Positions 46,324 to 51,730 of a stretch of DNA of 64,000 nt are shown piece by piece. The stretch lies in contig JAAYVG010000014.1 in assembly GCA_012517285.1 (NCBI GenBank), positions 26,040 through 90,039 of the forward strand, in the 5' to 3' direction. The position numbers were made by a program, and so were the translations under genes. This DNA is from Elusimicrobiota bacterium (GTDB lineage Bacteria; Elusimicrobiota; Elusimicrobia; Elusimicrobiales; UBA9959). Every line of letters begins with the position of its first letter. The first letter of the stretch is position 1. The notes under the pieces are model-generated. The model saw nothing but the letters and a program-made list of their open reading frames with translations. It made no database searches and had not been told where the DNA came from.

Positions 46324-47790
46324 ATGCTTTTAATCAAGTTCGCTATGCTTTTTTTAACATCTCTTTATTCTGCTGATTATAGATCTATTTTATGGATAAC
46401 CAGCTCAACATCAGATGTAAATGAGATTATAAAATTCAAAGCTGATAATAATCTATCATTTGAGCTTTCACTGCTTTCTGACTCCATGGCTTCTATGCCT
46501 GAAGACAGTGCATTTGAATATATTGATGGTTTTTTAAGTTTTTATCCTGTAGAGACTGTATTTTTTCCATCCAAAAGTGGTATTAAAGAATTTCAAAATT
46601 ATGATGATAGTGGTGATCTGTTCAGAAGTTTTTTTGATTATTACTATACAACATATTTGAAGATGAATGGGAGCAGGGGATTGTTATCAGGTTATGGTGT
46701 TGGAAGTTATGATATGATATCTTTTGCAAAGGATCATGGATATAACTGGATCTTTGGTGGCATTTCCTCATCAACCTTTTCTGGTGTTAAAAAAATTAAT
46801 GACTTTAACACAGTTTTTTTTGATCTTCTGAGGTCAACTGATGCGATATACACATCATCAAACACATTTTTTATAGTAAATGATATGGATAGTAGTAACT
46901 CATCGCTTGATATGTTAAAAAACATTTTAGCTGATAAAAGCATAAGCTTTATAAAAGTTTCTGATGCTGTTATGATATCAACACCATCTGTTATGGATTC
47001 CACAGATTCATTTCAAGGTTTATTTATACCTTTAAATGAGACAGTAAGCTGTCCTGCCTATTTAAACTATATGAATTATCTTGTACTTCTTACAGAGGAT
47101 ATTTCCAAGAAGGATTATTCCACTGCAGAAGATATATTTGAAAACTATATAAATCTTTTTAATTATTTTAAAGATATCTGTCAGGCTAAAGAATCTTTTG
47201 CCGATGATATAAGAGAGATTACAAATAATATTTATATAAATCTTTATCAAGATCCTCCATATTTCATAAACTATGATTTTTTAAATAATTTTAATATAAA
47301 AAAATATGTAAGAAATAATACTGATACAGGAGTTTATTTCAATTCTTTATCGTCGCAAACAATAAAAAGTTTTAGTGTTGTTAGTGATACATCTACGGAT
47401 TCAGTTGTTTTTACAATTGAGTTTTCAACTCAGAATATTTTTGATGAAACACATATATATATAGATATCAACCAGAGAAGAAATGCTGGTAGTGATATCA
47501 TTATAGGAAGGGATGAGAGGATCGATGGGCTTTACGGCTGGGAGTATGCCTTTGTGATAAAAGACAGTTCTGTAGTATTATACAAAAACTCTTACAGAGA
47601 CTATTACAAATTCAAGACTTATAGGCTTTCATACAATGGAGATAGGGCTTATTTCAAAGTTAAGGCATCTGATCTAATCGGTAATTTTGTTAACTGGAAT
47701 TATACAGTTGTTAATTATGATAAAAACCAACTCATTGATGGTATATACGAAACGGCTGATATGAAGTTTTTGTATCCAGTAACCTATTGA
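46324..47790 (+). CDS. Secreted protein with glucodextranase/DOMON-like C-terminal domain
   Basis: C-terminus 'VFTIEFSTQNIFDETHIYIDINQRRNAGSDIIIGRDERIDGLYGWEYAFVIKDSSVVLYKN'; N-terminal half not recognised with confidence. Confidence 0.5.
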   Translation: MLLIKFAMLFLTSLYSADYRSILWITSSTSDVNEIIKFKADNNLSFELSLLSDSMASMPEDSAFEYIDGFLSFYPVETVFFPSKSGIKEFQNYDDSGDLFRSFFDYYYTTYLKMNGSRGLLSGYGVGSYDMISFAKDHGYNWIFGGISSSTFSGVKKINDFNTVFFDLLRSTDAIYTSSNTFFIVNDMDSSNSSLDMLKNILADKSISFIKVSDAVMISTPSVMDSTDSFQGLFIPLNETVSCPAYLNYMNYLVLLTEDISKKDYSTAEDIFENYINLFNYFKDICQAKESFADDIREITNNIYINLYQDPPYFINYDFLNNFNIKKYVRNNTDTGVYFNSLSSQTIKSFSVVSDTSTDSVVFTIEFSTQNIFDETHIYIDINQRRNAGSDIIIGRDERIDGLYGWEYAFVIKDSSVVLYKNSYRDYYKFKTYRLSYNGDRAYFKVKASDLIGNFVNWNYTVVNYDKNQLIDGIYETADMKFLYPVTY

Positions 47791-47831
47791 TTTGGTTTGA
47801 TTATTTTAATTTTTTTTGCTATTCTAATTCT

Positions 47832-49043
47832 ATGGTTTATTTATTATCATCTATTATAGCCTTTCTTCTCATAATACTCTTTATTGTTCTTAACAGGCTT
47901 TACAATCTAAAATTGGCATCTTTGAAAAATAAGAAATCATCATCACCAAATGTTAAGAAGATACTCAGCAAGTTTGATGAGCTTTTGCTGGATATGATTG
48001 CTGTCCATGATTCTGGTATCAAGGGTGTTCCTGCAGGAAAAGAGGGTGAGTTTTATAAAATGGCTCTTTTAAGAGCCTGTGATATAGTTGGTTCTGATCG
48101 TGGTTCAATAATGATATATAACAATGATGATGGTCTGCTTCACATAATAGCATCACGTGGGATTTCAGATGAGCTTGTGGAGAAGATAAAATTAAAGCCC
48201 GGAACAGGAGTTGCAGGAAGGGCTTTTGAAAAGGGTGAGATAATATTTGTTACGAACCCTGAGAAAAATCCTGATTATGATGGTTATATGGGTTATGATG
48301 AACAGACAGAACCGTTTGTAGCTGTTCCGCTTAAAATAAAAGATTCAACAGTTGGTGTATTAAATATTCATCTTCCAAAAACAAAGAATAATTTCACAGA
48401 TCTGGAGTTAAAGTTCTTGAGCATTCTTGCCGGTGAAATATCCATAATGGCAGAGAACATAAATCTTTATCAAAGTATAGAAAAATTCTATTTTGAGCTG
48501 GTTCAGACGCTTGCCAAGACTATAGATGCAAAGGATTCTTACACTGGCAGTCATGCTATTACAGCAAGGAACAGAGCTAAAAAGCTTGCCGAGAGAATGA
48601 ACATTCCTGAGAAGTTTATAAAAAATATTGAGTATGCTGCTATTCTACATGACATAGGAAAGATTGGTATAGATGACAGGATAATAACAAAGCCAGCTAA
48701 GCTTACGGATGAGGAATATGCTCAGATAAAAAAGCATCCCGAGATTGCATATGATATACTCTCGCCTATAGAATTTTTATCTATAGTGGCAAAAATAATT
48801 TTATATCATCATGAATGGTTCAATGGTAATGGATATCCTGAGGGACTCAAGGCTGAGGAGATTCCACTCGGTTCCAGAATAATAAGCGTAATAGATGCAT
48901 GGGATGCAATGACATCCGACAGGCCTTATAGAAAAGCTCTTAAAAAAGAGGATGCAATAAATGAATTAAAAAATGGGGCAGGAAAACAATTTGATCCAGA
49001 TGTTGTTGATGCCTTTTTAAAATTGATTGAGGAAGAAGAGTAG
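47832..49043 (+). CDS. GAF and HD-GYP domain protein, putative c-di-GMP phosphodiesterase
   Basis: 'KPGTGVAGRAFEKGEIIFV' GAF; 'YAAILHDIGKIGIDDRIITKPAKLTDEEY' and 'HHEWFNGNGYPEGLKAEEIPLGSRIISVIDAWDAMTSDRPYR' HD-GYP; first ATG at 47832 preferred (track start 47787). Confidence 0.92.
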   Translation: MVYLLSSIIAFLLIILFIVLNRLYNLKLASLKNKKSSSPNVKKILSKFDELLLDMIAVHDSGIKGVPAGKEGEFYKMALLRACDIVGSDRGSIMIYNNDDGLLHIIASRGISDELVEKIKLKPGTGVAGRAFEKGEIIFVTNPEKNPDYDGYMGYDEQTEPFVAVPLKIKDSTVGVLNIHLPKTKNNFTDLELKFLSILAGEISIMAENINLYQSIEKFYFELVQTLAKTIDAKDSYTGSHAITARNRAKKLAERMNIPEKFIKNIEYAAILHDIGKIGIDDRIITKPAKLTDEEYAQIKKHPEIAYDILSPIEFLSIVAKIILYHHEWFNGNGYPEGLKAEEIPLGSRIISVIDAWDAMTSDRPYRKALKKEDAINELKNGAGKQFDPDVVDAFLKLIEEEE

Positions 49044-49190
49044 GGTGACACTGAAAAAGTGGTAAAAACTGCATGCTTTTTTTAATATTAGATATCAAAA
49101 ACCTTGCAGTTTTGATATAAGTTTTTAAATCTTTTATGCAGTTTTTCATTTATAAAATCTCCACCGTTAGGCTTTTTTCAGTGTCCCCTA
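49041..49190. mobile_element. Minimal MITE-like element (~146 bp plus TA duplication)
   Basis: TA|GGGTGACACTGAAAAAG ... CTTTTTTCAGTGTCCCC|TA; reverse complement matches the left arm of the 3849-4443 element. Confidence 0.8.
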
Positions 49191-49195
49191 AGTAG

Positions 49196-50332
49196 GTGAC
49201 TGTGCTTTTTATTGTAGGAACACCGATAGGAAATTTTAAGGACATAACTCTAAGAGCTCTTGACACAATAAAAGAGTGTGATGTTGTATTTTGTGAGGAT
49301 ACAAGGGAAACACTGAAGCTTTTAAACCATTATTCAATATCAAAACCACTTTTCAGATACAACGATCATGTAGAGGATAGCATATCAAAGATATTCGATT
49401 TTTTAAAATCACAGAAAAAGGTCTGTCTTATATCGGATGGGGGAATGCCAAACATATCTGATCCGGGTGCTGTTATAATAAAAAAGGCAAGGGAAAACAA
49501 TATTAAAGTTGAGGTGATAGGTGGGGTCAGTGCTGTCATAAATGCAATAAGTGGTAGTGGGCTTGATGGTAGTGGTTTTATATTTCTTGGGTTTCTTCAG
49601 AGAACTGAATCAAAGATGATAAAGGAACTAAACAGAGCCTTTATGCAGGGTTTGCCTGTTGTGATCTATGAATCACCTTATAGATTGGTCGATTTTTTAA
49701 AAACCGTGTCAAAAAATTTTAATAATATCAGCGTGATCGTGGTAAGGGAAATGACAAAGATCTATGAGGAGTGGATTTCTGGAGATATCAATGATGTCAT
49801 AGAACAGATAAATAGAAAAGGTTCTTTGAAGGGTGAGATAACAGTAGTTCTGTCAAAATCTAAAGAGAAAGGGATTGATATGGTTGGTAGTATTGGTTTT
49901 CTTTGCACAGCAAACACCTGCCGAAGCTTTATGGCACACTATTATGCGGTTAAAAAATCTTCTGAAAAGGGCGTTAAAATATCAATCTCATCTGCAGGAA
50001 TAATTGCAGGTGATTCTGTATCAGATAATGCTGTAGCAGTTTTAGAAAAAGAGGGTATAAAAAATATTTTTCATACTCCAAATCAAATGGATTGGAACTT
50101 TATGGAGAAAAATGATTTGATACTCGTTATGACGAGGAAGCACAGGGAGATAATAAAAAATCTTTTTCCTCAGTATGAAAAAAAAGTTTTTACACTTCTT
50201 GGCTATGCGGGGCTTGGTGGAGGAGATGTATATGACCCGTATGGTAAAAACTATTCTGAGTATGAAAGAGTTTTTGAACAGATAAAAAAAGCGATTGATA
50301 CAATAATTGACAATTTAAGCAAATCAACATAA
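49196..50332 (+). CDS. Fusion: RsmI-type 16S rRNA methyltransferase plus low-molecular-weight protein phosphatase domain
   Basis: N-terminal 'LFIVGTPIGNFKDITLRALDTIKECDVVFCEDTRET' (RsmI); C-terminal 'IGFLCTANTCRSFMA' (CX5R) and 'DVYDPYGKNYSEYERVFEQI' (LMWPTP Asp loop). Confidence 0.88.
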   Translation: MTVLFIVGTPIGNFKDITLRALDTIKECDVVFCEDTRETLKLLNHYSISKPLFRYNDHVEDSISKIFDFLKSQKKVCLISDGGMPNISDPGAVIIKKARENNIKVEVIGGVSAVINAISGSGLDGSGFIFLGFLQRTESKMIKELNRAFMQGLPVVIYESPYRLVDFLKTVSKNFNNISVIVVREMTKIYEEWISGDINDVIEQINRKGSLKGEITVVLSKSKEKGIDMVGSIGFLCTANTCRSFMAHYYAVKKSSEKGVKISISSAGIIAGDSVSDNAVAVLEKEGIKNIFHTPNQMDWNFMEKNDLILVMTRKHREIIKNLFPQYEKKVFTLLGYAGLGGGDVYDPYGKNYSEYERVFEQIKKAIDTIIDNLSKST

Positions 50333-50488: not shown

Positions 50489-51730
50489 ATGTATGAAACA
50501 ATAAAGCAAATTGACAGAGAAGTTTATGATGCCATGATTGGAGAGCTTACAAGACAGCAGAATAAGTTAGAGCTCATAGCGTCTGAGAACTATACATCAA
50601 GAGCTGTTCTTGAAGCACTTGGAAGTGTTTTAACAAACAAGTATGCTGAGGGATATCCGGGGAAGAGATATTATGGTGGATGTGAGTGGGTGGATGTTGT
50701 TGAAAGACTTGCAATAAAAAGGGCAAAAGATCTTTTTAAGGCAGAGCATGCAAATGTTCAACCTCACAGTGGGACACAGGCAAATATAACCTCATATATG
50801 GCACTCATTAAGCCGGGTGATAAGGTTATGGGATTAAATCTTTCTCATGGTGGTCATCTTTCACACGGTAGTCCTCTTAATTTTTCAGGCAAATATTTTA
50901 AGATAATAAGCATCAATGTAAACAAGGACACAGAACTAATAGACTATGATGAGATGGAGAAAACTATAGAAAAGGAAAAGCCAAAGTTAATAATGGCTGG
51001 CGCATCAAACTATTCAAGAATATGGGACTGGAAGAGGATAAAGCAGATGGCCGATAACTGGAAGTGCTATTTAGTCTGTGATATCGCTCATTATGCAGGG
51101 CTTATTGCTGCAGGTGTTTATCCTTCACCTGTTGAATATGCTGATGTTGTTACGACTACTACACACAAGACGTTGAGAGGTCCAAGAGGTGGTCTTATAC
51201 TTTCAAAAAAAGTTTATTCAAAATCTGTTGATAAGTCAAACTTCCCTGGCAATCAGGGCGGTCCTCTTATGCATACTATAAGTGCTAAGGCAGTTTGTTT
51301 TGGTGAAGCATTGAAGCCTGAGTTCGTTGAGTATCAGAAACAGGTTATATCAAATGCTAAAAAGTTAGCAAAGGAATTGGAATCAAAGGGATACAGAATA
51401 GTTTCAGGTGGGACAGATTCTCACCTTTTTTCGCTTGATCTAAGGGCAAAACATATCACAGGTAAGGATGCAGAAGAGGCACTCGATAAAGCAGGAATAA
51501 CTGTCAACAAGAATACGATCCCTTATGACCCAGAGCCTCCAATGGTAACAAGTGGTGTAAGAATTGGAACACCTGCTGTTACAACAAGAGGTATGAGGGA
51601 AAATGAGATGGAAGAGATAGCAACCTATATAGATGAGGCAATAACTCATAAGGATGATGAGTCTTTCCTGAAAGCTTTGAGTGAGAAGGTTAAAGGGCTT
51701 ACAAAAAGATTCCCAATTTACAACGATTAA
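50489..51730 (+). CDS. glyA: Serine hydroxymethyltransferase
   Basis: '[45 protein letters not shown]', '[17 protein letters not shown]'. Confidence 0.98.

What the first reader, a model, noticed from the sequence alone, without database searches (positions are those of the whole stretch)
49196..50332. Single-ORF fusion of RsmI rRNA methyltransferase with a low-molecular-weight phosphatase domain
The N-terminal ~225 aa read as RsmI. The C-terminal ~140 aa read as an LMWPTP/YwlE-like phosphatase, with the CX5R P-loop 'CTANTCR' and Asp loop 'DPYG'. RsmI normally acts alone, and I know of no RsmI-LMWPTP fusion. The next gene is glyA. In Bacillus the LMWPTP-type arginine phosphatase gene ywlE also lies near glyA, so the phosphatase half may be in ancestral context while RsmI was joined to it. 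An in-frame ATG at 49880 preceded by GAAAGGGA could also give a free phosphatase from an internal start.
Basis: partly seen in the sequence, partly recalled or inferred. Interest (0 to 1): 0.65.

Follow-up and report, generated by a model that had tools for sequence, protein, structure and literature searches.

The report
RsmI–LMW phosphatase fusion from neighbouring genes
This gene encodes one protein that joins a ribosomal-RNA methyltransferase to a small protein phosphatase; the fusion is real, recurs in related bacteria and arose from genes that were neighbours in an old operon, although in this species the arginine kinase that normally opposes the phosphatase looks dead.

Summary
The ORF at 49196-50332 is real. 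Residues 3-225 are a bona fide RsmI (TIGR00096 202.6 bits, cut-off 167.9); residues 229-378 are a YwlE-like low-molecular-weight phosphatase (LMWPc 91 bits; model superposes on YwlE, TM 0.91). It is no assembly error: the architecture occurs in 14 genomes (6 genera) of the same family, probably within order Elusimicrobiales (inferred), at 40-56% identity. The wider class has an ancestral gene order rsmI-tsaC-lmwptp-glyA-PNP. In most of this family tsaC has left, making rsmI and lmwptp neighbours, in one genus with a 4-nt stop/start overlap. Trees of either domain and of three marker genes split the fused genes into three clades; one fused clade is rejected. Three fusions (3 steps) are slightly more parsimonious than one fusion plus three fissions (4). 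In another family of the class the same phosphatase is fused to TsaC instead. Arginine specificity is inferred from the P-loop Thr, but this genome's McsB has lost its catalytic residues and the g9 fusion genomes have none, so the present substrate is open. The proposed internal start at 49880 is not conserved. Verdict: a genuine domain architecture, unpublished in the held library, of two known enzyme families.

The parts
49196..50332 (+). Fusion gene rsmI-lmwptp, 378 codons from GTG 49196; likely start GTG 49202 (376 aa)
   Evidence: start by alignment to relatives
49202..49870 (+). RsmI (TP-methylase fold) domain, residues 3-225
   Evidence: TIGR00096 above cut-off; PDB 3kwp, 5hw4, 9pzg matches; AlphaFold/Foldseek
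49865..49879 (+). Interdomain linker, residues 224-228
   Evidence: pLDDT below 50 at 224-228 between two confident domains; length varies among relatives
49880..50332 (+).
   Evidence: PF01451; best PDB match YwlE; internal start test
49904..49924 (+). Phosphatase P-loop CTANTCR (CX5R), with Thr at the position that selects phospho-arginine in YwlE/PtpB
   Evidence: sequence; alignment; role of the Thr from PMC8001253
50234..50245 (+). DPYG loop with the general-acid Asp
   Evidence: sequence; alignment to YwlE DPFG
50489..51730 (+). glyA, conserved downstream neighbour
   Evidence: (73-85% identity in f1 relatives)
47787..49043 (+). GAF-HD (HD-GYP type) gene upstream; an ORF of similar size precedes rsmI in several relatives
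   Evidence: Pfam; ORF map
49044..49188 (.). MITE-like element with 15-bp terminal inverted repeats, inserted between the HD gene and the fusion gene; the congener has a 1-bp gap here
   Evidence: L041 ORFs 48-1319 and 1321-2448

Best explanation
The gene encodes a bifunctional two-domain enzyme. The N-terminal half is RsmI, which 2'-O-methylates C1402 of 16S rRNA. The C-terminal half is a YwlE-type LMW phosphatase joined by a short flexible linker. It arose because rsmI, tsaC and the phosphatase gene were consecutive genes of an old operon upstream of glyA; when tsaC left the operon in most of this family, rsmI and the phosphatase gene became adjacent and, at least in one genus, overlapping; loss of the intervening stop fused them, probably on three occasions. 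The two domains most likely work independently, the fusion fixing co-expression at 1:1 rather than channelling a shared substrate. The phosphatase was ancestrally the eraser of McsB arginine phosphorylation; in the window's lineage the kinase is degenerate, so the retained phosphatase probably now acts on another substrate. Shown: architecture, conservation, gene-order history, three clades, P-loop residues, loss of McsB catalytic residues. Inferred: both activities, arginine specificity, independence of the domains, number of fusion events.
For: Domains. Fusion in 14 genomes, 6 genera, with P-loop intact in all 14 and the acid Asp in the 13 whose ORF is complete. Class-wide order rsmI-tsaC-lmwptp-glyA in families f9-f15 (tsaC-lmwptp-glyA in f6) and in genus g5 of the own family, which makes the separate state ancestral. 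tsaC gone from the cluster in most f1 genera, replaced by a longer Sua5 elsewhere. 4-nt stop/start overlap (NTGA, frame -1) in most g4 genomes examined. One fused clade rejected: p-AU 0.009 (RsmI), 0.010 (LMW), 6e-41 (ClpC+RsmH+GlyA). Same phosphatase fused to TsaC in genus g60. RsmH, the N4 partner at C1402, is present. Two confident domains with a low-confidence linker. McsB canonical in g4, g5, g11, g12; degenerate in g1, g13; absent in g9, g3.
Against: No biochemical data. Parsimony separates three fusions from one fusion plus three fissions by only one step (3 against 4). Repeated fusion could mean that tethering itself is selected, not merely neutral coupling. Lineages keep the phosphatase without an active McsB, so the arginine-phosphatase reading is only ancestral inference; one fused member (G013) has Ile in place of the selective Thr.
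Confidence: 0.62

Rival explanations
1. Ribosome-tethered eraser: the RsmI half carries the phosphatase to the 30S subunit, where it removes phosphate (phospho-arginine or other) from ribosomal proteins or translation factors, so the fusion is selected for localisation.
For: The phosphatase was fused repeatedly to translation-modification enzymes: RsmI in up to three lineages and TsaC in another family. RsmI is solved bound to the small subunit, 9pzg. In B. subtilis the t6A protein TsaD is a reported McsB/YwlE target (PMC7546277).
Against: No active McsB in the window's genome or in g9. Linker length and sequence vary freely. Operon adjacency alone explains the choice of partner.
Confidence: 0.2
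2. One ancestral fusion when tsaC left the cluster, followed by splitting back into two genes in g11, g3 and g4.
For: Loss of tsaC from the cluster is shared by most f1 genera and could itself have created the fusion; only one more event than three fusions.
Against: Needs three fissions; g4 has a start codon exactly overlapping the stop; g9 is fused while its sister g3 is separate.
Confidence: 0.3
3. The phosphatase domain is a passenger losing its role after loss of the arginine kinase.
For: McsB degenerate or absent in clades A and B; Ile at the selective position in G013.
Against: P-loop retained in all 14 fused genomes and the acid Asp in all 13 complete ones, at 40-56% identity; several family members that lack McsB have lost the phosphatase as well, whereas these kept it.
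Confidence: 0.12
4. Assembly or sequencing error that removed a stop codon.
For: None beyond the prior.
Against: Continuous ORF in 14 genomes from different assemblies.
Confidence: 0.01

Closest known systems
RsmI, 16S rRNA (cytidine1402-2'-O)-methyltransferase (E. coli RsmI, PDB 5hw4; 9pzg; 3kwp)
   Same: Whole methyltransferase core, AdoMet-site Asp of the DPG motif and the conserved Arg after YES aligned; above the TIGR00096 cut-off
   Different: Match ends at position 225 of 275 of the family model, so the usual C-terminal extension is missing, and a phosphatase stands in its place
YwlE / PtpB protein-arginine phosphatase (PDB 1zgg, 4kk3, 4pic)
   Same: CX5R P-loop with Thr, DP loop, fold TM 0.91, best PDB match of this half by sequence and by fold; glyA neighbourhood
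   Different: Not free-standing; P-loop Gly replaced by Ala (CTANTCR); no active McsB in this genome
T. tengcongensis LMW phosphatase deposited as RpiB (PDB 4egs)
   Same: YwlE-like phosphatase, one of the nearest PDB matches
   Different: Recorded under an isomerase name, which suggests a fusion to RpiB (a lead, not tested here); not RsmI
TsaC(Sua5)-LMWPTP fusions in f15 genus g60 of the same class (L190, L200, L201)
   Same: Same cluster, same phosphatase, fused C-terminally to the gene upstream
   Different: Partner is TsaC, and rsmI remains a separate gene

Membership tests
RsmI | Scores above the curated equivalog cut-off | tested here: met
   TIGR00096 202.6 vs 167.9 bits
RsmI | Conserved AdoMet-site and catalytic-core residues | tested here: met
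   E. coli Asp100 and Ala124 (PMC5053481) align to Asp and Ala; conserved Arg after YES present (residue numbers counted by hand)
RsmI | 2'-O-methylates C1402 of 16S rRNA | not testable with these tools
   Partner RsmH is present
YwlE arginine phosphatase | LMWPTP fold with CX5R and DP loop | tested here: met
YwlE arginine phosphatase | Thr (not Ile) at the P-loop selectivity position | tested here: met
   CTANTCR; all fused members but G013 have Thr; role of Thr from PMC8001253
YwlE arginine phosphatase | Works with an active McsB kinase | tested here: not met
   Only McsB homologue in the genome has NISEHLL for NEEDHLR and lacks the other active-site Arg positions
YwlE arginine phosphatase | Hydrolyses phospho-arginine | not testable with these tools
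   needs enzymology
Classical LMW tyrosine phosphatase | Ile at the P-loop selectivity position and grouping with the other LMWPTP paralogues of these genomes | tested here: not met
   Thr present; separated from the five paralogues tested by a 99/92 branch

The most novel reading that the evidence does not exclude
A YwlE-type phosphatase has been tethered convergently, several times, to ribosome- and tRNA-modifying enzymes (RsmI, TsaC) because it must act at the translation machinery, and in lineages whose McsB is dead it erases a phosphorylation made by an unknown kinase.
Probability: 0.17. Interest if true: 0.68.

Novelty: new variant of a known kind. Interest (0 to 1): 0.43.

Why it matters
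Both halves are well-known enzymes, but the combination was not found in the held literature, and the clear record of its origin (operon, loss of the middle gene, adjacency with overlapping stop/start, fusion in three clades) is a clean case of probably repeated gene fusion. It links rRNA methylation with the arginine-phosphorylation pathway outside Gram-positive bacteria, and it points to lineages in which the eraser outlived the writer, which makes the search for another substrate or kinase concrete.

Tried and rejected
Assembly error or lost stop: rejected, 14 genomes. Internal start at 49880 as a general feature: rejected, no start codon at that place in G001 and most others; it cannot be excluded for this species alone. 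A single fused clade: rejected by AU tests. RsmI recruited to a ywlE-glyA locus: rejected by the class-wide order. Apparent TsaC-LMWPTP fusions in several GC-rich f14/f15 genomes (L181, L185, L187, L189) proved to be long open alternate frames, not fusions. The genome-contig scan gave only two Ruminococcus RsmI loci, matched over the RsmI half only, and no names for the own lineage. Literature search for Sua5-phosphatase fusions gave nothing relevant. ClpC N-domain as a test of phospho-arginine reading was inconclusive: the motifs stay canonical in most genomes without McsB too.

Full report
1. Observation. The ORF 49196-50332 (+) is open over 378 codons. Pfam finds TP_methylase (4-199) and LMWPc (233-368). 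NCBIfam places the first half in the RsmI equivalog TIGR00096 above its cut-off, but only to position 225 of 275. PDB searches give RsmI structures for the first half and YwlE for the second. An AlphaFold model from 24 sequences has mean pLDDT 88, two confident domains, a linker at 224-228 below 50 and pTM 0.59, so the relative placement of the domains is undetermined. Foldseek finds RsmI 5hw4/9pzg and YwlE 4etn/4kk3 (TM by target 0.91-0.92). The start is probably GTG 49202, because relatives begin there.

2. It is not an artefact. Fourteen genomes of the same family, the window's own included (codes g1, g2, g8, g9, g12, g13), carry the same continuous ORF at 40-56% identity; in G008 it is cut by a contig end. 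All keep CX5R, and the 13 complete ones keep DP. No other fused match appeared among the best matches listed for the class or the phylum (the class list was cut at the weaker end, where only single-domain matches would be expected). The organism: one genome of the sister family in the same order has a single contig of 1,643,562 bases (G045), which I recall as the length of Elusimicrobium minutum Pei191; I therefore infer order Elusimicrobiales, unconfirmed by any named record.

3. Gene-order history. In families f9-f15 and in genus g5 of the own family the order is rsmI - tsaC - lmwptp - glyA, usually followed by a PNP-family gene; in f6 tsaC - lmwptp - glyA is kept, with rsmI further off or out of view. 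In E. minutum-like G045 (f2) rsmI and tsaC are adjacent, and the PF01300 places lie next to rsmI in the other f2 genomes as well. In g6 and g10 tsaC still follows rsmI. In the other f1 genera the best Sua5 is longer and lies elsewhere, so rsmI and lmwptp meet. In g4 they are separate, and in most g4 genomes examined the phosphatase start overlaps the rsmI stop by 4 nt (NTGA) in the -1 frame. In g11 and g3 they are separate with small gaps or overlaps, G003 having them on two contigs. In g6, g7, g10 and G019 no phosphatase of this type was found (the g10 contig ends inside the cluster).

4. How often. The RsmI tree, the phosphatase tree and a tree of ClpC+RsmH+GlyA (1568 columns) all give clade A (g1, g2, g13, with g8 in the domain trees), clade B (g9, sister of unfused g3) and clade C (g12). 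In the marker tree clade C groups with unfused g4 and g7. Holding all fused rows together is rejected with p-AU 0.009, 0.010 and 6e-41. Given that the separate state is ancestral, three fusions cost three events, one fusion with three splittings (g11, g3, g4) costs four. I prefer three fusions, without certainty. In another family (f15, genus g60) the same phosphatase is fused in frame to TsaC in three genomes; G233 may be a further case (same frame, about 21 nt apart, not read through). So this phosphatase tends to be fused to whichever gene stands upstream.

5. What the phosphatase does. The P-loop Thr is the residue that directs YwlE and PtpB to phospho-arginine, while Ile favours phospho-tyrosine (PMC8001253). 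In the own family 37 of 59 genomes have both a McsB-family hit and this phosphatase, 11 the phosphatase alone, 4 the kinase alone (one of these has a phosphatase fragment at a contig end), 7 neither (my count; draft genomes and shared ancestry make this descriptive only). This supports an ancestral writer/eraser pair. But in the window's genome the only McsB homologue (L061 111-962, 283 aa) reads NISEHLL where canonical McsB reads NEEDHLR, and the STR and ERHH motifs are lost too; G001, G013, G021 and G027 are alike, G002 keeps the Glu but not the Arg, and g9 and g3 have no McsB. The gene pair mcsA-mcsB still sits as intact ORFs in its conserved operon with a lysyl-tRNA-synthetase-like gene and ABC-transporter genes (names by eye). 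The present substrate of the fused phosphatase is therefore unknown, and the label arginine phosphatase is an inference about ancestry.

6. Mechanism. Most likely the protein is a bifunctional enzyme with two independent domains, RsmI methylating C1402 together with RsmH (present; C1402 roles in PMC13317604 and PMC5053481) and the phosphatase acting on its own substrate. The variable linker, the operon origin and the lack of a shared substrate favour this. Tethering to the ribosome is possible and testable.

7. Internal start. ATG 49880 with GAAAGGGA lies at the domain border, but no start codon is found there in G001 or most other members, so free phosphatase from an internal start is not a conserved feature.

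8. Novelty. Searches of the held open-access library found no RsmI-LMWPTP fusion. The library is incomplete and no architecture database was searched, so 'unpublished' holds for that library only.

Noticed in passing
L061 111-962 (-) (own genome, C40); L062 6639-7583 (-); L065 4390-5445 (+); L066 6448-7464 (-): McsB homologues that have lost the catalytic motifs yet remain intact ORFs next to mcsA in a conserved operon: candidate pseudokinases, perhaps kept as ClpC adaptors.
   Followed up: partly
window 49044-49188: A MITE-like element with 15-bp terminal inverted repeats (GGTGACACTGAAAAA) sits between the HD gene and the fusion gene; 41 matches in the own genome, about 15 of them near full length.
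   Followed up: partly
L190, L200, L201 (genus g60, f15): Single ORFs fusing TsaC/Sua5 with the same LMW phosphatase (CTGNTCRS) in the rsmI-glyA cluster.
   Followed up: partly
L118 (own ClpC) compared with L119-L141: In g1 the ClpC N-domain motifs RFTERAQ and FTPRAKK have become RFSPHFQ and LSSQAKK; these may belong to the phospho-arginine pocket, which would fit loss of arginine phosphorylation in this genus.
   Followed up: no
G013 (L043, genus g13): The fused phosphatase has CSGNICR, Ile instead of Thr at the specificity position, in a genome with degenerate McsB.
   Followed up: no
L065 6832-7536, L064 1908-2624, L066 5728-6429: A second, divergent TP_methylase-like protein is encoded near or beside the degenerate McsB in g13.
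   Followed up: no
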